Shown: positions 4,198-12,634 of the stretch, one piece after another
How positions within the stretch are numbered: position 1 is the stretch's first letter
Layout of the letters: each line of letters opens with the position of its first letter
From: Pseudobdellovibrionaceae bacterium
Lineage (GTDB): Bacteria; Bdellovibrionota; Bdellovibrionia; Bdellovibrionales; UBA1609
Reading direction: 5' to 3'
Length of the DNA: 64,000 bases
Assembly (NCBI GenBank): GCA_947444305.1
Contig: CANEZP010000002.1
Coordinates: forward strand, 124,001-188,000
Notes under the pieces: generated by a model
Databases searched by the model: none
Seen by the model: only the letters and a program-made list of their open reading frames with translations
Told to the model about the DNA's origin: nothing
Made by a program: the position numbers and the translations under genes

Positions 4198-5904
4198 TTA
4201 TTTTTCGCAGCCGAGCAGTTCACCCAGCCGGCACTTTTCTTGAATGCGTTCGGTGATGCGGTTCCAAATGTTGACCGACTGGCCGTTGATTTGGCCGGAA
4301 TAAATATCAATGCCGCCGACGCCGCGACGATTTGGATCTTTGTCGGCGCCGGGAAGGAATCTCCGAAGATCAATTCCGTTCGCGTCCGTCGCCGGTGGAC
4401 GGTTCGTGCCTTGTCCGTAACCGCCGAAGCCGCCGGCGCCACCGTCGGTGCTCGTATCGATCGCCGCCGCCGAGTAACCGCCGGCGCCACTAAATCCTTG
4501 CAGGACATCCGTCGTGTACCCGGGCGCGCCGCTCGGGCCGCGCGCGTTTTTACCGTCGAGCTTCGCGGGCGCTCCGCCTTCACCGCCGGGAATTCCGCCG
4601 CCGGAGTTATTCGCGATCGTGCCGTTCTTCACGCCCGTCGGTTGAAAACCGTTCGGGTCCGAATTCAAACCGCTCGCATCCGCACGTGGTTCTTGGATAT
4701 CAAAATCACCTTTGGTTTTTTTGCCCACGCCAGGGTCTACGCCGAACGAAGCTTCGCCCCGCTGTTCTTTTTCGTAGGCGAGCGCGCGGCACGCCGGTGA
4801 GTTTGGACTCGTGCTACAAGCCTGCGACATCGGATCATTTGCTGAGTCGAGCGACGCTTGGTTCATCGCGCCCGCATCGGCACCCGAACCAGGCGCGCCC
4901 GCGCCACCCGCGTTTTGCGGAGCGGCCGCGCTCATCTCTTGGCAAGCGGCGGCGGCTCCGCTCGAGCTTCCCGACGCGAGACCTTGGCTGCCCATTTGCG
5001 AAAGCAAAGACGAATAACCTTCGCAAGTGCTCACGCGATTGCGCAATTCACCGAGTGTTTGTTCGTAAATCTGCCGGCTATCGCAGCCCGAGCAATTCGA
5101 AAGGAGTTGATTGTATTTGTCGGCCATTTCTCCGCACGTGCCGGTGCAACTGCTGTAGCCCGAGTAGCAATTCGCGCCGGCGTTTTGATTCGCGTTCATG
5201 TTGCCGCCACCGGCTTGGTTGAGCTGCTGACAGTACGCCTGCATACTCGCGCGGTTCTGTTCGGCCGTTCCGTTTTGCGCGGGCGGGGCGGGCTGATTTG
5301 CGCTCGACTGCGAACCACTACAACTGTTTTTCGCTTTCGTTTGCAACTGACCACAAGCTTGCAAATCCTGCGAAGCCTGCTGCTGCGCCTGATTCCGATC
5401 CTGAGGCGTCGTCGCCGCGGGATCACTCTGACTCTTCGTCTTACCACCGGCCGAATCAGCCTTCTTCTCGCTTTGCTCTTTCGCGGCGGGACTCGGGCCA
5501 CGGCTAGGCGAAGGCTTGGGCGGATTAGTCCCTGGCGATGGACAGGGCTTATCCGAAAGTATGCGTCTTCCATTGCATATTTTCGTTGTTATCTCCGTAT
5601 CTGCGGAACAGCCGGTTTTACCTTTGCAGCCAGACTCTACCGAGCATGTTTTTTTCTGACACCAAGAGACTATCCACGTTTCACAGCTTACAACGTAATT
5701 GGCCAATCCCACATCAAGGATTCCGTGACAGATTGCTTTGCAACCGCCAAGTGCATTTGAATAAGTGGAATAGAGTGCACCTGACCTTTCAAGGCATTCA
5801 TTATATTTCGTTCGAGCAGCAGAGCCCTCTGACGAAAGACGGTCGGCGGCACTTATTTGAACAAAGGCTGCGAATGCCAGGGTGATAAGAATTCTGAACT
5901 GCAT
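4198..5904 (-). CDS. Large secreted Cys- and Gly-rich protein, unknown function
   Basis: This is a protein of about 568 residues. The ATG at 5904 begins a clear signal peptide (MQFRILITLAFAAFVQISAA). Residues 20-120 are Cys-rich, with about ten cysteines suggesting disulfides. A Pro/Ser/Lys linker follows (PSPGTNPPKPSPSRGPSP), then a Gln/Ala/Asn-rich segment with further Cys pairs (CSGCDSRQIYEQ). A long Gly/Ala/Ser/Asn low-complexity region ends in a more ordered tail (RRFLPGADKDPNRR onward) with two cysteines. I do not recognise the family. It points away from the serine peptidase array and is separated from it by 185 bp of shared intergenic DNA, so a functional link is possible but unproven. 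Confidence 0.75.
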   Translation of the reverse strand: MQFRILITLAFAAFVQISAADRLSSEGSAARTKYNECLERSGALYSTYSNALGGCKAICHGILDVGLANYVVSCETWIVSWCQKKTCSVESGCKGKTGCSADTEITTKICNGRRILSDKPCPSPGTNPPKPSPSRGPSPAAKEQSEKKADSAGGKTKSQSDPAATTPQDRNQAQQQASQDLQACGQLQTKAKNSCSGSQSSANQPAPPAQNGTAEQNRASMQAYCQQLNQAGGGNMNANQNAGANCYSGYSSCTGTCGEMADKYNQLLSNCSGCDSRQIYEQTLGELRNRVSTCEGYSSLLSQMGSQGLASGSSSGAAAACQEMSAAAPQNAGGAGAPGSGADAGAMNQASLDSANDPMSQACSTSPNSPACRALAYEKEQRGEASFGVDPGVGKKTKGDFDIQEPRADASGLNSDPNGFQPTGVKNGTIANNSGGGIPGGEGGAPAKLDGKNARGPSGAPGYTTDVLQGFSGAGGYSAAAIDTSTDGGAGGFGGYGQGTNRPPATDANGIDLRRFLPGADKDPNRRGVGGIDIYSGQINGQSVNIWNRITERIQEKCRLGELLGCEK

Positions 5905-6089
5905 CAACTAAATTGTATCTTCTTTAAAGCCATTTAGGGAAACTAGCTTTGTTTAGGCCTTATTGCTAAACGATCTGTACCTAGCCTAAGCCTTCGTATC
6001 ATCTTGAGTCAGGTCATTGGACTAGGTTTGGTGCCTTCAATCGGGTTCTTTACTCGATTTATAACCCGCTATTCGGAGATACTCACATA

Positions 6090-6911
6090 ATGATCAGTCT
6101 TAGGTGGTTGTCTTTATTCGTTATTCTTGCAAATGCTAATCTTGCTCTCGGGTATCCCTTTTGCCATAACCAAGGTTCACTTGAGGAGCAAGCGGCGCTC
6201 CTCCACCGAGCAACGAGAATCGGTAGAGAAAACCGGCGGCCCATCCCGAAGGCGATGGAGAAGAAGTTTGCCGGCACCGGCCTTATAGTCTGCGGTAACG
6301 ACACCGTGACCGCGCAAGTCACGGGAAGTGCGAACGTAATCACAACTGCGGGCCACGTGTTTAGTACTGATGATTGTCAGCCAAAGAACCGAGAAAAGTG
6401 CCATTTTGAGCGAACAATCAACGGGCGCATCAAAGAATTTCGCTTGAACATTAAATCGCTTAAAACGGGCGGTCCTTGTCCGAGTGGCGAAAGGATGACC
6501 GATTGGGCTGTCATCAAATTGGAAGATCCAATGCCTGATGTCTCGCCTTACGAGATTCCGGATGAAGATAATTTGCTTAAAGAAGGTGAAAATATCCTAC
6601 AGATTACCGGGATGAGCGTCGATTACAGCGTGAATGGTGCACTCCCGAAAGCGATGGAAATGTGTCGAGCTGAAAAAATTGACCTAACTGCGTTGGCACC
6701 CGTTAAACATAGTTGTGACACGGGGGGTGCTTCATCGGGGAGCGCTCAGTTCGTCAAACGTGGTGATAAAATGATCTTCGCCGCCATGAACGTGGCGGAG
6801 CATGGCCACTTGCCGCCGGGCAGTGGGTTTGACGAAGAAATGAACTACAATACGTCAACGCCGGTGACCGGGCGTTTCCTGAAAGCAATTCGCGAAGCGA
6901 TGAAGCCGTGA
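6090..6911 (+). CDS. Secreted trypsin/V8-like serine peptidase, array copy 1
   Basis: This 273-residue chymotrypsin-fold peptidase has a signal peptide (about residues 1-21, ending LALG). The triad can be read as His89 in VITTAGHVF, Asp138 in MTDWAVIKLE and Ser216 in CDTGGASSGSAQF. Seven cysteines in the mature part suggest disulfides. ATG start with GGAG about 10 bases upstream. It is the first of six tandem paralogues of 273-278 residues, all on the plus strand with 4-base overlaps, so a single mRNA is likely. It ends GTGA, giving the GTG start of copy 2. Its last 55 codons are nearly identical to those of copy 5. The substrate is unknown; it should act in the periplasm or outside the cell. 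Confidence 0.9.
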   Translation: MISLRWLSLFVILANANLALGYPFCHNQGSLEEQAALLHRATRIGRENRRPIPKAMEKKFAGTGLIVCGNDTVTAQVTGSANVITTAGHVFSTDDCQPKNREKCHFERTINGRIKEFRLNIKSLKTGGPCPSGERMTDWAVIKLEDPMPDVSPYEIPDEDNLLKEGENILQITGMSVDYSVNGALPKAMEMCRAEKIDLTALAPVKHSCDTGGASSGSAQFVKRGDKMIFAAMNVAEHGHLPPGSGFDEEMNYNTSTPVTGRFLKAIREAMKP

Positions 6912-7744
6912 GCCCGACGATCAGGACAATATACATAAAATTTTTAGCCTTTACCATGTTTGGCATGTCACCTAGTCAAAGCGAAGCTATCGCGAACTGT
7001 TATCCCCAATCGTCCTGCTATCAAAACGGTCTCTTTCAACTTGCAACAAGGTTCTCAAGAGAAAATCGAAAGGTAATTCCAAAATCTCTTGAATCGAAGT
7101 TCGCGGCCACCGGAACAATCGATTGCGGGGCAGGTGCCGCAACGGCGCAGATTACAGGGAAGTCGAATGTCATCACGACCGTTGGACACTTCTTTCACGA
7201 TGAAAATTGCCAACCAAAAAATCGGGGTAAGTGTATGTTTCAGGTGACCGTAAACGGTCGCTTCACTGAATACCCCTTAAAAATGGATGCATTGAAGACG
7301 GGTGGTCGCTGTCCCTTGGACAAAGGTTTAACGGATTGGGCGGTACTTAAGCTTGAAACGGCTGTGCCAGGAATAACGCCTTACGAAGTGCCGGATGAAG
7401 ACAATCTGCTCAAAGCGGGCGAACAAATCATGCAGGTGTCAGGCTACGCCACAAACTTCATGGTGAGCGGTGCTTATCCGAAATCTATGGAGAGTTGTCT
7501 CGCGGATCAAATAGATCTTACCCACACCGATCCCATCAAACACACCTGTGATACGGGAAAGGGATCCTCCGGAAGCGCTCAGTTCGTGGTGCGCTCGAAA
7601 AAGATGATCTTCGCAGCGATGAATATAAGTCAGCAAAAAGATTTCCCGGACGGTTCCGATTACAATGCCGACAGTGCCTTCAATACATCTACACCTGTCA
7701 GCGGAAATTTCCTTAGCGCAATCCGCGAAGCGATGAAGCCGTGA
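6908..7744 (+). CDS. Secreted trypsin/V8-like serine peptidase, array copy 2
   Basis: This is a 278-residue paralogue of copy 1 and the most diverged member. GTG start within the GTGA overlap with copy 1. The signal peptide is followed by IANCYPQSSCYQNG, so it has two N-terminal cysteines where the others have one. The triad is intact: His in VITTVGHFF, Asp in LTDWAVLKLE, Ser in CDTGKGSSGSAQF. It differs from its sisters around the specificity region (VSGYATNFMVSGAYPK instead of ITGMSxxYSVNG), so it may cleave different bonds (inference). It ends in the GTGA that starts copy 3. Confidence 0.9.
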   Translation: MSPTIRTIYIKFLAFTMFGMSPSQSEAIANCYPQSSCYQNGLFQLATRFSRENRKVIPKSLESKFAATGTIDCGAGAATAQITGKSNVITTVGHFFHDENCQPKNRGKCMFQVTVNGRFTEYPLKMDALKTGGRCPLDKGLTDWAVLKLETAVPGITPYEVPDEDNLLKAGEQIMQVSGYATNFMVSGAYPKSMESCLADQIDLTHTDPIKHTCDTGKGSSGSAQFVVRSKKMIFAAMNISQQKDFPDGSDYNADSAFNTSTPVSGNFLSAIREAMKP

Positions 7745-8571
7745 GAACGACTGAATTCTATCTATTTGTATTAGTAATCATTGGGTTGTTTCCTCATTCA
7801 CGTGCGCAAGCTTACGTTTATTGCCATAACCAACCCTCAATCGAAAAGCAGATCGAATTTATCCATCCGGCAACCAGGATGGGTAAGGAAAGCCGGCAAC
7901 CCATCCCTAAAGCAATGGAACAAAAGTTTGCGGCAACAGGCTTAATCGTCTGTGGAGAAGCAACTGCGACCGCCCAAATCACTGGTGTTTCAAATCTTAT
8001 CACCACTGCGGGTCACCACTTTTACGACGAGAATTGCCAACCTATTAACAGAGGTAATTGCAACTTCGAAGTAAAACGTCACGGGAAAATATCTTCGATT
8101 CCTGTGAAGCTAGAGTCGCTTAAGACCGGCGGCCCATGCCCTTCGGATGATTTCAATAATGATTGGGCGGTGGTTAAACTCCAATCGCCCGTTGATGGTG
8201 TCACGCCATACGAAGTTCCCGAGGAAGATAACATGCTCGTCGAAGGTGAACCAATCATGCAGGTTACCGGGATGAGTATCAACTATAGCGTTAACGGCGC
8301 GTTTCCAAAGTCTATGGAATCCTGCATCGCCGAAAAGATTGATCTCAATCATCCGTCACCAGTCAAGCATGGCTGTGACACCGGTGGAGTGTCTTCGGGA
8401 AGCGCGCAGTTTGCGGTGAGAAATAAAAAAATGATTTTTGCGGCGATGAATGTCGGCGGCACAAAGAATGCGATGGACGGCACCGAGTTCGACGCGGACA
8501 CCAACTACAATAGCTCAACGCCGGTGTCGGGCCGATTCCTTAGAGCAATCAAGACGGCGATGAAGCCTTGA
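7741..8571 (+). CDS. Secreted trypsin/V8-like serine peptidase, array copy 3
   Basis: This is a 276-residue paralogue with GTG start overlapping copy 2. The signal peptide ends HSRAQA, and the mature protein starts YVYCHNQPSIEKQ. The triad is complete: His in LITTAGHHF, Asp in NDWAVVKLQ, Ser in CDTGGVSSGSAQF. The conserved array motifs RQPIPKAMEQKFAATGLIVCG and TPVSGRFLRAIKTAMKP are present. It ends TTGA, which supplies an unusual TTG start for copy 4. Confidence 0.9.
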   Translation: MRTTEFYLFVLVIIGLFPHSRAQAYVYCHNQPSIEKQIEFIHPATRMGKESRQPIPKAMEQKFAATGLIVCGEATATAQITGVSNLITTAGHHFYDENCQPINRGNCNFEVKRHGKISSIPVKLESLKTGGPCPSDDFNNDWAVVKLQSPVDGVTPYEVPEEDNMLVEGEPIMQVTGMSINYSVNGAFPKSMESCIAEKIDLNHPSPVKHGCDTGGVSSGSAQFAVRNKKMIFAAMNVGGTKNAMDGTEFDADTNYNSSTPVSGRFLRAIKTAMKP

Positions 8572-9398
8572 GACCAACACCGTTGTTTATAGTTCTTTTG
8601 ACGATCGCCGGGATCATTTTTGGTTTCTCTGCCGATGCTTACAATTATTGCCATAACCAGTTTTCGATCGAAAAACAGTTTGAATTACTCCATCCTGTAA
8701 CCAGAATGGGTCGAGAAAGCCGACGCCCAATCCCGAAAGCAATGGAGTCGAAGTTTGCCGCTACCGGCTTGATCATTTGTGGCTCGGACTCGGTGACCGC
8801 ACAGGTTACGGGGAGTGCAAATGTTCTGACCACCGTAGGCCACATCTTTAGTACCACCGACTGTCAGCCGGTCAATCGAGACAACTGTCACTTTGAACGC
8901 ACGGTGAATGGCCGAATCAAAGAGTATCCCTTAAAAATGAAGTCCTTGAAAACAGGAGGCCCATGTTCGGATGATAATGGAAACAACGACTGGGCGGTCT
9001 TGAATCTAGAATCTCCCATTCCCGATGTGACCCCCTACGAAATTCCGGAAGACGATAATCTCCTAATCGAAGGTGAACAGATTCTTCAAATCACCGGCAT
9101 GAGCATCAACTATAGCGTAAACGGAAAGTTTCCAAAATCGATGGAGTTCTGTCGCGCCGAGCAGATTAATTTAAAACATCAGACTCCGGTAAAACACGGC
9201 TGTGATACGGGCGGCGTGTCTTCCGGATCTGCTCAATTCGTAAAACGAAACGATAAAATGATTTTCGCGTCGATGAATATCGATGAAAAAGCCAACGGCG
9301 CCGACGGCGAGAACTACGATTCAGAAACGAATTACAATGGCGCGACCCCGGTTTCGGGACGCTTCTTAAAAGCTATTCGTGCGGCGATGAAACCGTGA
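8568..9398 (+). CDS. Secreted trypsin/V8-like serine peptidase, array copy 4
   Basis: This is a 276-residue paralogue. The start is TTG inside the TTGA overlap with the stop of copy 3; no other start fits the signal peptide (MRPTPLFIVLLTIAGIIFGF...ADA). The triad is His in VLTTVGHIF, Asp in NDWAVLNLE and Ser in CDTGGVSSGSAQF. There are seven cysteines, as in copies 1, 3 and 5. Start by stop overlap with a TTG makes translational coupling likely and may lower expression relative to its neighbours (inference). Confidence 0.9.
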   Translation: MRPTPLFIVLLTIAGIIFGFSADAYNYCHNQFSIEKQFELLHPVTRMGRESRRPIPKAMESKFAATGLIICGSDSVTAQVTGSANVLTTVGHIFSTTDCQPVNRDNCHFERTVNGRIKEYPLKMKSLKTGGPCSDDNGNNDWAVLNLESPIPDVTPYEIPEDDNLLIEGEQILQITGMSINYSVNGKFPKSMEFCRAEQINLKHQTPVKHGCDTGGVSSGSAQFVKRNDKMIFASMNIDEKANGADGENYDSETNYNGATPVSGRFLKAIRAAMKP

Positions 9399-10228
9399 AG
9401 GAAGACAAACCTTATTTTATTTTTCTAACCCTCTTTCAATTGGCTTTTCACCCGTACGCTCAAGCGTACGTTTATTGCCATAACCAATCTTCGATCGAAA
9501 AACAAATAGAGTTTATTCAGCCGGCAACTAGGATCGGAGGGGAAAACCGTCGACCTATCCCAAAAGCTATGGAAAAGAAGTTTGCGGCGACAGGATTGAT
9601 TGTTTGCGGAACGGATACGGTAACTGCGCAGGTTACAGGAAGCGCAAATGTCATAACTACGGCCGGGCATCTCTTCGGGACTGACCATTGCCAACCCGTA
9701 AACCGGGATAACAAATGTAAATTTGAACGAACTATTAACGGAAAAATAAAATCATACCCACTCAATATCAAATCTTTAAAGATAGGCAGCCCTTGTGCTA
9801 GCGATGATCGAATAAACGATTGGGCGGTTTTGAAGTTGGAAGATCCAATATCGGACGTCACCCCGTATGAGATCCCTGAACAGGACAACCTTCTTATCGA
9901 GGGTGAAGACATCCTCCAGATCACTGGTATGAGCATCGACTATAGCGTAAACGGCACCTTTCCAAAATCTATGGAGATCTGCCGTGCGGAAAAAATCAAT
10001 CTCACCAATCGTTCACCCGTAAAGCATGGTTGTGATACCGGTGGCGTTTCCTCGGGAAGTGCGCAGTTCGTAAAACGTGGTGATAAAATGATCTTCGCCG
10101 CGATGAACGTGGCTGAGCATGGTCATCTGCCCCCGGGCAGTGGCTTTGACGAAGAGATGAACTACAATACATCAACCCCGGTGACCGGGCGTTTCCTTGC
10201 GGCAATTCGTGCGGCGATGAAGCCATGA
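9395..10228 (+). CDS. Secreted trypsin/V8-like serine peptidase, array copy 5
   Basis: This is a 277-residue paralogue with GTG start overlapping copy 4. The signal peptide ends HPYAQA, then YVYCHNQSSIEKQ. The triad is His in VITTAGHLF, Asp in INDWAVLKLE and Ser in CDTGGVSSGSAQF. The N-terminal half most resembles copies 3 and 4. From VKRGDKMIFAAMNVAEHGHL to the end it is almost identical to copy 1, also at synonymous positions, which suggests gene conversion. It ends ATGA, supplying the ATG of copy 6. Confidence 0.9.
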   Translation: MKEDKPYFIFLTLFQLAFHPYAQAYVYCHNQSSIEKQIEFIQPATRIGGENRRPIPKAMEKKFAATGLIVCGTDTVTAQVTGSANVITTAGHLFGTDHCQPVNRDNKCKFERTINGKIKSYPLNIKSLKIGSPCASDDRINDWAVLKLEDPISDVTPYEIPEQDNLLIEGEDILQITGMSIDYSVNGTFPKSMEICRAEKINLTNRSPVKHGCDTGGVSSGSAQFVKRGDKMIFAAMNVAEHGHLPPGSGFDEEMNYNTSTPVTGRFLAAIRAAMKP

Positions 10229-11051
10229 AAATAAAATCGGCGAGCTTGAGATTGGTCTACATCTTCATATCCTTCGTGCCCCTTATTCCGCGGCGCACGT
10301 ATACACTCACGGTCAAAGTTTATTGCAGAGGGAGAGATCCTTACGCCATCCCGCGAGCAGAATGGGTGTCGAGAATCGTAAACCCATCCCCAAGTCGCTG
10401 GAAAAAAAGTTCGCCGCAACGGGTTTGATTATATGCGGGACGGATGCCGCCACCGCCCAGGTCACCGGGGCGGAAAAAGTTTTGACAACGGCAGGCCACC
10501 AATTCGCCGATGATAAGTGTCAGCCGACCAATCGGGAAAAGTGTCATTTCGAGCGTACGGTGAACGGCCGGATAAAAGAGTATCCGCTGGACATGAAGTC
10601 TCTCAAGGTTGGTGGACCGTGCGCGGACGGCGTAAATGATTGGGCGGTCGTGAAGCTGAGAGCACCCATTCCCGGTGTCACGCCATACGAAATACCTGAA
10701 GAAGAAAATATTTTGATCGAGGGCGAAGAGATCGTCCAGATTTCTGGGTTTCACGATAACTACAGCATAAACGGAAGTTATCCCCGGACGATGGAGATCT
10801 GCCGGGCTGAGCATATCGATCTGAAACATACGATAGCGCCGATTAAACATAGCTGCGACACCGGTGGTGGTTCTTCCGGCAGCGCTCAATTTGTAACAAG
10901 GAACGGCAAGATGATCTTTGTTGCAATCAACATCAATCACCAAAATAAACAGAGCGATGGGGACGATTACTACGCAGACACCAACTATAATGGTGCGACT
11001 CCTGTTTCGGGAAGATTACTTAAAGCTATTCGCGACGCGATGAAGCCCTAA
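10225..11051 (+). pseudogene. Serine peptidase array copy 6, single frameshift near the signal peptide
   Basis: An ATG overlapping the copy 5 stop opens a frame coding a signal-peptide-like start (MKIKSASLRLVYIFISFV). The homologous mature region, from AAHVYTHGQS onward, lies in the -1 frame and runs to 11051. The switch maps to the CCCC run at 10279-10282; one extra C there would restore a 275-residue protein with a normal ...SAA cleavage site. The triad is otherwise intact: His in VLTTAGHQF, Asp in VNDWAVVKL, Ser in CDTGGGSSGSAQF. The N-terminal Cys found in its sisters is Thr here. It is either a recent pseudogene, a phase-variable or recoded gene, or a sequence error; a conventional re-start (TTG 10323) would lack the signal peptide. 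Confidence 0.8.
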
Positions 11052-11104: not shown

Positions 11105-11133
11105 TTGACGGATCTCTGATAACGTGACATAAT
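11105..11133 (+). promoter_or_regulatory. Sigma-70-type promoter for a leaderless mRNA
   Basis: TTGACG at 11105-11110 and CATAAT at 11128-11133 are separated by exactly 17 bp. The expected transcription start, about 7 bases past the -10 box, falls on the A of the ATG at 11141, and there is no ribosome-binding site before that ATG. The nuclease gene would then be translated from a leaderless message. Confidence 0.6.
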
Positions 11134-11140
11134 TCTTAGT

Positions 11141-12634
11141 ATGCGACCATTACCGAAGCTTCTCAGCAAAACGAAGATCATGCGCGGGTACCGGTGCGCA
11201 AAATCCATTTACCTGACGATACAACGACCGGATCTCGAGCCGCCGGTCGGTCCCGATCAGCAGGCCGTTTTCGATCAAGGCAACATGGTGGGTGAGGTCG
11301 CGCGCGGTTACTATCCGGGCGGCGTTTTGGTGGACAACAAGCCTTGGGATTTCGGCGGCTCGCTAAAGCGCACGCGAGAATTGTTAAAAGACGGCACCGA
11401 GTTCATTTACGAGGCCGCCTTCGAGTACAAAGGCTGTTACGCCCGCGCCGATATTTTGAAATACTCCAAAGAGACTAAGCGCTGGACGCTGATCGAAGTG
11501 AAATCGGGGATTAAGGTGAAGCCCGAATACCTCGAGGACGTCGGGCTCCAAGCATGGATCATCGCGAACGGCGGCATCCAGCTCGAAAAAATTTGTATTC
11601 TGCACCTTAATCCGGAGTGCCGGTTTCCGAACTTAAAAAACCTTTTCGTTGAGGTCGACGTCACCGATCAGCTGCGCGAAACCTACCGTGACATCGCGCC
11701 GAGGCTGAACGCGATCTTCACCGCGCTTCGGTCGCAGGATATTCCCGATGTGGATATCGGCCCGCAGTGTTCGGTGAACCGAGACTGCGAATTTAAATCC
11801 TTCTGTTTCGGTCAGCGCGAAATTCCGGAAGTGAGTATCTTCAACATTCCACGCATTGGCGCAAAGGTTTGGGACTTCTATAAGAAGGGGCAGCTCGCGC
11901 TCTCGGACATCGACACTTCAGGACTCAACGAACAACAAAAATGCATGGTCGATGTTCACCTCAACGATCAGCCCTTCATCGATCGTGGTGCGATCCAAAG
12001 CGCGATGAGTGAGTGGAAGTATCCGCTGGTCTACCTCGATTTCGAGACGATTAATCCGCCGATCCCGCGTTACCCGGGAACGGGGCCTTACCAGCAAACG
12101 CCGTTTCAATTTAGCGTGCATATTCAACAGGAACCGGGCGGACCGCTTGAACACAAAGAGTTCTTGCATGACACGGCCACCGATCCGCGGCCGTCTTTAA
12201 TTCCCGCATTGCTCGAAGCTTGCGCGGGGCAGGGAACGATCGTCGCCTACTTCGCAACGTTCGAGAAAAAATGCATCACCGATCTCGCCGAGTTCTCAAA
12301 AGCGCATCGCGACGAGCTGCTCGCGCTGAACGAACGCTTCGCCGATCCGCTCGACATTATGCGTGCGGCCGTTTATCACCCGGGTTTTGCCGGCAGCTAC
12401 AGTCTGAAAGCGGTCGCGCCGGCTTTGCTCGGCAAACAATTTTCGTATGATGAGATGGAAGTGGGCGACGGTGGAGCCGCGCAACGCGCGTTTACCGAAC
12501 TTATCAATGAGACGACGAGTGAACCTCGCCGTCAGGAACTAACTCGCGCGATGCTGGACTACTGCCGGCAGGATACGCTCGCGATGGTCGAGGCGGTCAA
12601 TTGGCTCGGCCGTCAGGCGACGGCCGCGGGCTAA
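11141..12634 (+). CDS. DUF2779 protein: Cas4-like nuclease fused to a DEDDy exonuclease domain
   Basis: This 497-residue protein has two nuclease-like halves. The N-terminal half has GYRCAKSIYL (first Cys), ARADIL, then TLIEVKSGIKVK (the D...ExK of PD-(D/E)XK nucleases) and CSVNRDCEFKSFCF, giving the four cysteines of the Fe-S cluster seen in Cas4 and AddB nucleases. The C-terminal half starts LVYLDFETINPPIPRYPG (DxE of DEDD exonucleases) and ends with DYCRQDTLAMV, the tyrosine/aspartate motif of the DEDDy type; this half is DUF2779. It should be a DNA or RNA nuclease in the cytoplasm. It stands alone, with no cas genes or RecBCD partner nearby. The start follows the leaderless promoter at 11105-11133. 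Confidence 0.8.
   Translation: MRPLPKLLSKTKIMRGYRCAKSIYLTIQRPDLEPPVGPDQQAVFDQGNMVGEVARGYYPGGVLVDNKPWDFGGSLKRTRELLKDGTEFIYEAAFEYKGCYARADILKYSKETKRWTLIEVKSGIKVKPEYLEDVGLQAWIIANGGIQLEKICILHLNPECRFPNLKNLFVEVDVTDQLRETYRDIAPRLNAIFTALRSQDIPDVDIGPQCSVNRDCEFKSFCFGQREIPEVSIFNIPRIGAKVWDFYKKGQLALSDIDTSGLNEQQKCMVDVHLNDQPFIDRGAIQSAMSEWKYPLVYLDFETINPPIPRYPGTGPYQQTPFQFSVHIQQEPGGPLEHKEFLHDTATDPRPSLIPALLEACAGQGTIVAYFATFEKKCITDLAEFSKAHRDELLALNERFADPLDIMRAAVYHPGFAGSYSLKAVAPALLGKQFSYDEMEVGDGGAAQRAFTELINETTSEPRRQELTRAMLDYCRQDTLAMVEAVNWLGRQATAAG

What the first reader, a model, noticed from the sequence alone, without database searches (positions are those of the whole stretch)
6090..11051. Six tandem paralogous secreted serine peptidases joined by stop/start overlaps
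Six genes of 273-278 codons sit head to tail in 5 kb. Each start overlaps the previous stop by four bases (GTGA, GTGA, TTGA, GTGA, ATGA), so the array should be read as one translationally coupled message. All keep a His-Asp-Ser triad and a signal peptide but differ in surface and specificity regions, as expected for a set of peptidases attacking varied protein targets. A gene array of this kind would suit a predatory or scavenging bacterium.
Basis: partly seen in the sequence, partly recalled or inferred. Interest (0 to 1): 0.75.

Follow-up and report, generated by a model that had tools for sequence, protein, structure and literature searches.

The report
Protease array paired with adhesion genes
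A relative of the predatory bacterium Bdellovibrio carries a row of six related secreted protein-cutting enzymes beside a cysteine-rich secreted protein, a pairing that recurs in related genomes at a pilus-linked locus whose Bdellovibrio counterparts appear tied to gripping prey, so the array is probably part of a contact-attack kit rather than a loose set of digestive enzymes.

Summary
The array is real: five intact genes (273-278 aa) joined by 4-base stop/start overlaps, His-Asp-Ser triad in all six copies. Copy six is not intact as printed: its overlapping ATG is in another frame from its peptidase body (10323-11051). Synonymous sites are saturated, so this is no collapsed assembly. The proteins are divergent chymotrypsin-fold (S1/V8-like) peptidases with Asp at the trypsin-189 position. 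The same peptidase family adjoins CYS at both other peptidase loci of this genome and at 11 loci in seven related genomes, always directly upstream or divergent (14 of 14). In three genomes the pair sits in or beside a core locus with a TadG-like minor pilin and a second secreted protein, X. CYS corresponds to Bdellovibrio HD100 Bd0149 and X probably to Bd0150, whose mutant cannot attach to prey. Most likely the peptidases are exported effectors working with a Tad-linked contact complex. The linkage is well supported; the biochemistry is inferred. The paper searches made here found no description of this module.

The parts
4198..5907 (-). CYS: cysteine-rich secreted protein, 569 aa; N-terminal signal peptide (by eye), Pro/Ala/Gln-rich stretch, Cys-rich helical region (about residues 168-308), Gly-rich linker, about 44-residue C-terminal domain shared with protein X
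   Evidence: ORF; family; helical region from a low-confidence AF2 model, well scored only in parts of 168-308; C-terminal domain; no Pfam or NCBIfam family
5908..6089 (.). 182-base gap between the divergent CYS and peptidase genes; probable two-way control region (inference)
   Evidence: coordinates; the same divergent layout with 114-120 bases at three other loci
6090..6911 (+). peptidase gene 1, 273 aa
6908..7744 (+). peptidase gene 2, 278 aa, GTG start overlapping gene 1 stop
7741..8571 (+). peptidase gene 3, 276 aa, GTG start overlap
8568..9398 (+). peptidase gene 4, 276 aa, TTG start overlap
9395..10228 (+). peptidase gene 5, 277 aa, GTG start overlap
10225..11051 (+). peptidase copy 6: overlapping ATG at 10225 and peptidase body (10323-11051) lie in different frames; triad intact in the body
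6700..6908 (+). 3' part of gene 1 in a probable gene-conversion tract with gene 5 (partner about 10017-10225): 83-90% DNA identity against about 62-73% over most of the rest of the pair
   Evidence: sliding identity; boundaries approximate

Best explanation
The six genes are a local expansion of a family of exported chymotrypsin-fold serine peptidases (PROT) that belongs with a cysteine-rich secreted protein (CYS). Shown by computation: PROT and CYS genes recur side by side at three loci of this genome and at 11 loci of seven other Bdellovibrionales genomes, in only two of four possible arrangements; the core copy of the pair sits in a locus TadG-like minor pilin - PROT - CYS - X, and CYS and X share a C-terminal domain. 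Inferred: CYS and X are surface or pilus-tip-associated proteins used in prey or surface contact, and the peptidases are exported with them and cut proteins at the contact site. Because most genomes of the order have CYS without PROT, PROT is more likely an added effector that uses CYS as partner or dock than an enzyme needed to mature CYS. Expansion to six copies, with one conserved pocket base (Asp at position 189, basic P1 expected) and a variable loop after the catalytic Ser, would widen the range of targets. The 4-base overlaps give coupled translation so that all copies are made together.
For: Fold: the AF2 model of gene 1 matches Bacillus intermedius glutamyl endopeptidase 1p3c at Z 16.0, rmsd 3.6, 203 aligned residues; 864 PDB chains at Foldseek E<=1e-3, the 50 shown dominated by chymotrypsin-fold proteases; the family profile hits 7uxg (1.5e-8), 1p3c (7.7e-6), V8-type 1wcz (6.3e-5); Trypsin_2 PF13365 in 16 of 24 family members at E<=1, best 3.1e-9. 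Triad in 31 aligned sequences: His in 30 of 30 and Ser in 29 of 29 that reach the site, Asp in 28 of 30 (Glu in two). Linkage: with gene 5 alone as query, 2 of 2 other PROT loci in this genome adjoin a CYS gene; three of three loci within 500 bases of one of four CYS genes has a chance near 2e-8. CYS-fetched loci outside this genome: 9 of 21 in the same family carry PROT (8 by profiles made from this genome only; the ninth after iteration), 0 of 11 in other families. Layout: 10 PROT-then-CYS, 4 divergent, 0 other, of 14. Independent expansion: window six, C14 three, C3 b-d and the four satellite genes of G003 each form their own group. PROT and CYS distances correlate over 14 loci (rho 0.45, 1 of 3000 shuffles as high). 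Core locus: TadG-like (PF13400) with PROT, CYS and X in G000 C3 and G003, and in G001 on two contigs. CYS/X shared C-terminal domain: hhalign probability 90.7, E 1.2e-6; CYS against PROT as contrast, probability 0.8. Function of relatives: Bd0149 G256V in host-independent biofilm formers fits CYS of the HD100-length genome (residue 256 Gly, codon GGT); the Bd0150 transposon mutant fails attachment, killing and rounding (PMC6561027).
Against: The window locus itself holds no TadG or X (G000 has one TadG-like match, on another contig). 12 of 21 same-family CYS loci have no PROT in view (several end at contig ends), the fourth CYS locus of this genome (C7, L055) has none, and one PROT locus (G008:C12, L076) has no CYS. 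With gene 5 alone, only 1 of 3 loci outside this genome adjoins CYS (one of the others is cut by a contig end beside the TadG-like gene). The PROT profile A3 was built partly from genes found next to CYS, so counts made with it lean towards linkage. Within the genus alone the distance correlation is weak (112 of 3000 shuffles as high). No step shows contact between PROT and CYS, export through a pilus, or action on prey. PROT lacks the shared C-terminal domain. The mapping of X to Bd0150 rests on gene order. Position 193 (oxyanion hole) is Ala or Val in four of the six window copies, which may lower activity.
Confidence: 0.5

Rival explanations
1. Cognate processing: the peptidases mature or trim CYS (and X), for example in the Arg-rich stretch between the Gly-rich linker and the C-terminal domain, releasing or activating it at the surface.
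For: Tight pairing and shared control layout; Asp at position 189 predicts cleavage after Arg/Lys, and the CYS stretch before its C-terminal domain keeps Arg residues.
Against: CYS is kept without PROT in most genomes of the order (CYS in 83 of 140 genomes; 0 of 11 CYS loci outside the family carry PROT). Six, three or four peptidases per CYS is more than a processing step needs.
Confidence: 0.2
2. Ordinary secreted digestive peptidases, amplified for dosage; the CYS neighbour is incidental.
For: Tandem amplification of secreted peptidases is common (general knowledge); members of the fold are widespread in the order at weak similarity (91 of 140 genomes at E<=1e-3).
Against: Three separate loci in one genome and independent expansions in other genomes keep the same neighbour in the same two arrangements.
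Confidence: 0.17
3. CYS is an inhibitor, chaperone or immunity partner that holds the peptidases inactive until release.
For: Cys-rich exported partner encoded next to the peptidases; 14 of 14 pairs are laid out so that they can be co-expressed.
Against: CYS stands in operons with TadG and X without any peptidase in most genomes, and in tandem CYS arrays in Bdellovibrio-like genomes. No solved fold was matched (the model is of low confidence, so this is weak).
Confidence: 0.08
4. The chymotrypsin fold is used as a binding module and the peptidases are not enzymes.
For: Non-Gly at position 193 in four of six window copies; the trypsin-fold component of an umbrella toxin particle (8w20_G) and inactivated mite paralogues are among the structural matches.
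Against: The triad is kept in all six window copies while the genes are under purifying selection (pN far below saturated pS).
Confidence: 0.05

Closest known systems
S1B glutamyl endopeptidases / V8-like peptidases (1p3c, 1wcz) and E. coli YdgD (7uxg)
   Same: Chymotrypsin fold, triad, secreted; a V-I-G-x-D-D-R-like motif near the mature N-terminus in several family members (the S1B motif is recalled)
   Different: Asp at position 189 and no His seen by eye at the Glu-binding position, so basic rather than Glu specificity is expected; window copies have a 20-25 residue pro-stretch ending in Arg; found as arrays next to CYS
Bdellovibrio secreted serine proteases BspK and BspE (PMC5288813, PMC6510308; search listing only)
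   Same: Serine proteases of a bacterium of the same order
   Different: Not compared by sequence here; the listing mentions no CYS or Tad neighbour
Kil/Tad pilus Tip complexes of Myxococcus (KilLMN, TadEFG-like; PMC12075869, sections 16-17 and passages read)
   Same: TadG-like large minor pilin in the core locus; paralogous exchangeable accessory loci; link to predation; a Bdellovibrio Tip is predicted there
   Different: CYS, X and PROT do not look like pilins; no peptidase arrays are described in the sections read; the window locus has no pilin gene
HD100 locus TadG - Bd0149 - Bd0150/0151 (counterparts of CYS and X)
   Same: TadG-CYS-X order; Bd0149 and Bd0150 mutants are reported in biofilm formation and prey attachment
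   Different: No PROT gene in that locus; CYS also occurs there as a separate tandem array

Membership tests
PA clan, family S1 serine peptidases | Chymotrypsin two-barrel fold | tested here: met
   Z 16.0 to 1p3c, model residues 41-273; 864 chains at Foldseek E<=1e-3; model mean pLDDT only 56.8
PA clan, family S1 serine peptidases | His-Asp-Ser triad in order with a G-x-S-G-like Ser motif | tested here: met
   6 of 6 window copies; His 30/30, Asp 28/30, Ser 29/29 of family sequences that reach the site
PA clan, family S1 serine peptidases | Curated profile match of the window proteins themselves | tested here: not met
   0 of 6 window proteins match Pfam at E<=1e-3; relatives match Trypsin_2 (16 of 24 members at E<=1), so the family is divergent rather than foreign
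S1B glutamyl endopeptidases | Glu-specific pocket (His at 213, Thr/Ser at 190; recalled) | tested here: inconclusive
   Thr at position 190 in the window copies but Asp at 189; no His seen at 213 by eye; no residue-level structural alignment was available
Trypsin-type zymogen activation | Asp194 to pair with the new N-terminus | tested here: not met
   Position 194 is Ser in all six
Tad/Flp pilus locus | TadE/TadG-like minor pilin gene in the locus | tested here: inconclusive
   Met at the core loci (PF13400 in 4 of 4 TadG-like proteins scanned; loci); not met at the window locus, since the only TadG-like match of the genome is on contig C3
Kil-type Tip complex | CYS or X with a pilin fold (N-terminal hydrophobic helix plus beta head) | tested here: inconclusive
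   CYS model shows a helical region and disorder only (mean pLDDT 41.1); X was not modelled

The most novel reading that the evidence does not exclude
Bdellovibrionales arm a Tad-type prey-contact complex with interchangeable arrays of peptidases: CYS and X form a tip-associated or surface scaffold held near TadG through their shared C-terminal domain, and PROT arrays are its payload, multiplied and diversified (with gene conversion) in satellite loci: a contact-delivered proteolytic weapon on a pilus system.
Probability: 0.25. Interest if true: 0.8.

Novelty: new variant of a known kind. Interest (0 to 1): 0.58.

Why it matters
The peptidases alone are ordinary. The recurrent unit is not: it ties a peptidase family to a Tad-linked operon (TadG-CYS-X) that spans the order of Bdellovibrio and whose HD100 members are listed as hypothetical or uncharacterized in mutant screens for attachment and biofilm. 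It turns several unexplained genes into one testable system and gives a sequence-based route to the accessory parts of predator pili, an open question named in PMC12075869.

Tried and rejected
Collapsed or recent assembly duplication: rejected by saturated synonymous sites. Positive selection on the pocket: not testable for the same reason. Named relatives with gene 5 alone: the genome-contig scan found none. Known family for CYS or X: none in Pfam or NCBIfam at useful E-values (X was scanned against Pfam only). The CYS model gave no PDB match at E<=1e-3, best 0.21 to a designed helical protein. CYS and PROT as homologues: no. Literature on the module: searches listed no paper that by title or abstract start describes CYS, X or a Tad-linked peptidase array; the library lacks most subscription papers and preprints, and supplements could not be read. 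A first guess of locus tags for the HD100 genes gave nothing useful; the residue-256 check then placed CYS at Bd0149.
Full report
The observation. Five genes at 6090-10228 are as described: 273-278 aa, head to tail, with 4-base overlaps. The sixth copy is different. Its ATG at 10225 makes the ATGA overlap, but that frame does not lead into the peptidase; the body 10323-11051 is in another frame, so a frame change lies in the signal-peptide stretch. The body keeps the triad. I cannot say whether the lesion is real. A promoter-like site (10 of 12 matches) lies at 11105-11133 before the DUF2779 gene at 11141, though such sites are no more frequent than chance in the region.

What the proteins are. 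None of the six matches Pfam at 1e-3, and gene 5 matches nothing in the PDB by phmmer at E<=1. With relatives added, the profile reaches solved V8-like peptidases and E. coli YdgD, 16 of 24 members touch Trypsin_2 at E<=1, and the model of gene 1 is a chymotrypsin fold (mean pLDDT 56.8, so details are not reliable). The triad is H89, D138, S216. Six residues before the Ser is Asp, the trypsin-189 place, in 6 of 6 window copies; position 190 is Thr in all six; position 194 is Ser; position 193 is Ala, Gly, Val, Val, Val, Gly in order (the numbering is by counting from the Ser motif, with chymotrypsin numbers recalled). An Arg stands just before [IFM]-[GS]-x-E-x-R in all six, where the mature end of this fold begins (model residue 45 aligns to chain number 17 of mammalian proteases), so a pro-stretch cut at Arg is plausible; the usual Asp194 partner is missing, so trypsin-style activation is not supported.

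Evolution of the array. All 15 pairs are saturated at synonymous sites (pS 0.74-0.85) while pN is 0.11-0.29: old copies under purifying selection. Genes 1 and 5 share a 3' tract at 83-90% DNA identity against about 62-73% over most of the rest, which fits gene conversion. The least conserved mature blocks are residues 231-250.

Other loci in this genome. With gene 5 as query the genome shows 11 matches: the six here, three on contig C14 and two on C3. ORF reading and profiles give three genes on C14 (L015) and four on C3 (L016). At each locus a cysteine-rich secreted protein of 563-625 aa stands next to the peptidases; in the window it is 4198-5907 on the minus strand. I call it CYS.

The pairing elsewhere. 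Window CYS searched alone hit 22 of 98 genomes, this one included. Of 21 loci fetched from other genomes of the same family, 8 carry PROT by profiles made only from this genome and 9 after iteration; of 11 loci outside the family, 0 do. Several of the 12 negatives end at contig ends. In the other direction, gene 5 alone found three loci outside this genome: one beside CYS (G001:C4), one beside the TadG-like gene at a contig end (G001:C307), one with neither (G008:C12). Later profile searches added G008:C8 and G028:C71; these use a profile partly built from CYS neighbours, so they lean towards linkage. Over 14 PROT-CYS loci (G000 x3, G003 x3, G001 x2, G014 x2, G021, G024, G008, G028), PROT lies directly upstream on the same strand in 10 and divergent in 4 (gaps 114-182 bases), never otherwise (chance 6e-5 if four layouts were equally likely). 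A tree of 28 sequences puts the window six, the C14 three, C3 b-d and the four satellite genes of G003 in separate groups, with window and C14 as sisters (three short sequences were left out of the tree, and several long branches make deep forks unsure). CYS of window and C14 are likewise closer to each other (distance 0.53) than either is to C3. Distances correlate over all 14 loci (rho 0.45, 1 of 3000 shuffles as high) and weakly within the genus (rho 0.41, 112 of 3000).

The core locus. In several genomes CYS follows a TadG-like protein with PF13400 and precedes X, a ~340 aa protein with a signal-like N-terminus: L049, L072, L075 (TadG-CYS-X); in L050 the order is TadG-X-CYS. In G003 the order is TadG, PROT, CYS, X on one strand, with a 674 aa gene (Y) on the other strand in between; the C3 locus of this genome has TadG upstream, a Y homologue (28% identity, E 5e-71) opposite, four PROT, CYS, X. 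In G001 TadG-PROT and PROT-CYS-X lie on two contigs. TadG-like genes occur in 42 of 47 family genomes, X in 123 of 140 order genomes, CYS in 83 of 140 (E<=1e-3). Across the phylum CYS at E<=1e-6 is in 78 of 368 genomes, only one of them outside the order. CYS and X share a C-terminal domain, which in this genome is found clearly in five proteins (four CYS, X) and weakly in two or three more.

What relatives do. The genome G071 has one contig of 3,782,950 bases, the length I recall for B. bacteriovorus HD100. Its TadG-CYS-X lies at 131,949-136,742, followed by a gene that by eye resembles an exo-muramidase (NamZ type, recalled). PMC11656739 names Bd0152 a muramidase (one passage). PMC11323537 (passages) reports Bd0149 G256V (c.767G>T) in two biofilm-forming host-independent strains; of eight genes checked here only CYS and the muramidase-like gene have Gly at 256, so Bd0149 is most likely CYS. 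X is then Bd0150 or Bd0151. PMC6561027 (passages) lists the Bd0150 transposon mutant as unable to attach, kill or round prey. These are pointers from relatives without the peptidases, not tests of this array. PMC5430801 and PMC12546842 (passages) and PMC12622784 (one passage) added nothing decisive.

Reading. The most economical account is an exported peptidase payload joined to a Tad-linked contact complex, multiplied in satellite loci. PROT is an option, not a requirement, of that complex, which argues against a pure processing role. Everything after genetic linkage is inference.

Noticed in passing
L089:4114-8574, L062:5297-11236, L065:5896-10645 and others: Bdellovibrio-like genomes carry tandem arrays of two to four CYS genes without peptidases, next to glutathione-peroxidase-like and aspartate-kinase-like genes in several (names by eye).
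   Followed up: partly
L083:12264-14743 (G071, HD100-length genome): CYS fits Bd0149 by the published G256V change; X is probably Bd0150, an attachment gene; both are called hypothetical or uncharacterized in the passages seen.
   Followed up: partly
G000:C1:84468-84560 (L091:5569-6702), G000:C9:91863-91952: Other ORFs end in a weak match to the C-terminal domain shared by CYS and X, hinting at a wider set of proteins with one sorting or docking tail.
   Followed up: no
L016:2160-4043 and L094:5866-7890: Protein Y (627-674 aa) lies on the opposite strand between the TadG-like gene and the peptidases in two core loci; no family was looked up.
   Followed up: no
G003:C1 end, C13 end, C5 end, C14 start; G001:C12 end (L060, L064, L079, L080, L061): CYS genes are often cut at contig ends, and two G003 contig ends give identically scoring CYS C-terminal fragments, as if a shared CYS stretch broke the assembly.
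   Followed up: no
window 9453-9470: A 7-pair hairpin followed by TTTATT lies inside the signal-peptide coding stretch of gene 5; terminator-like sites in the region are no more than chance.
   Followed up: no
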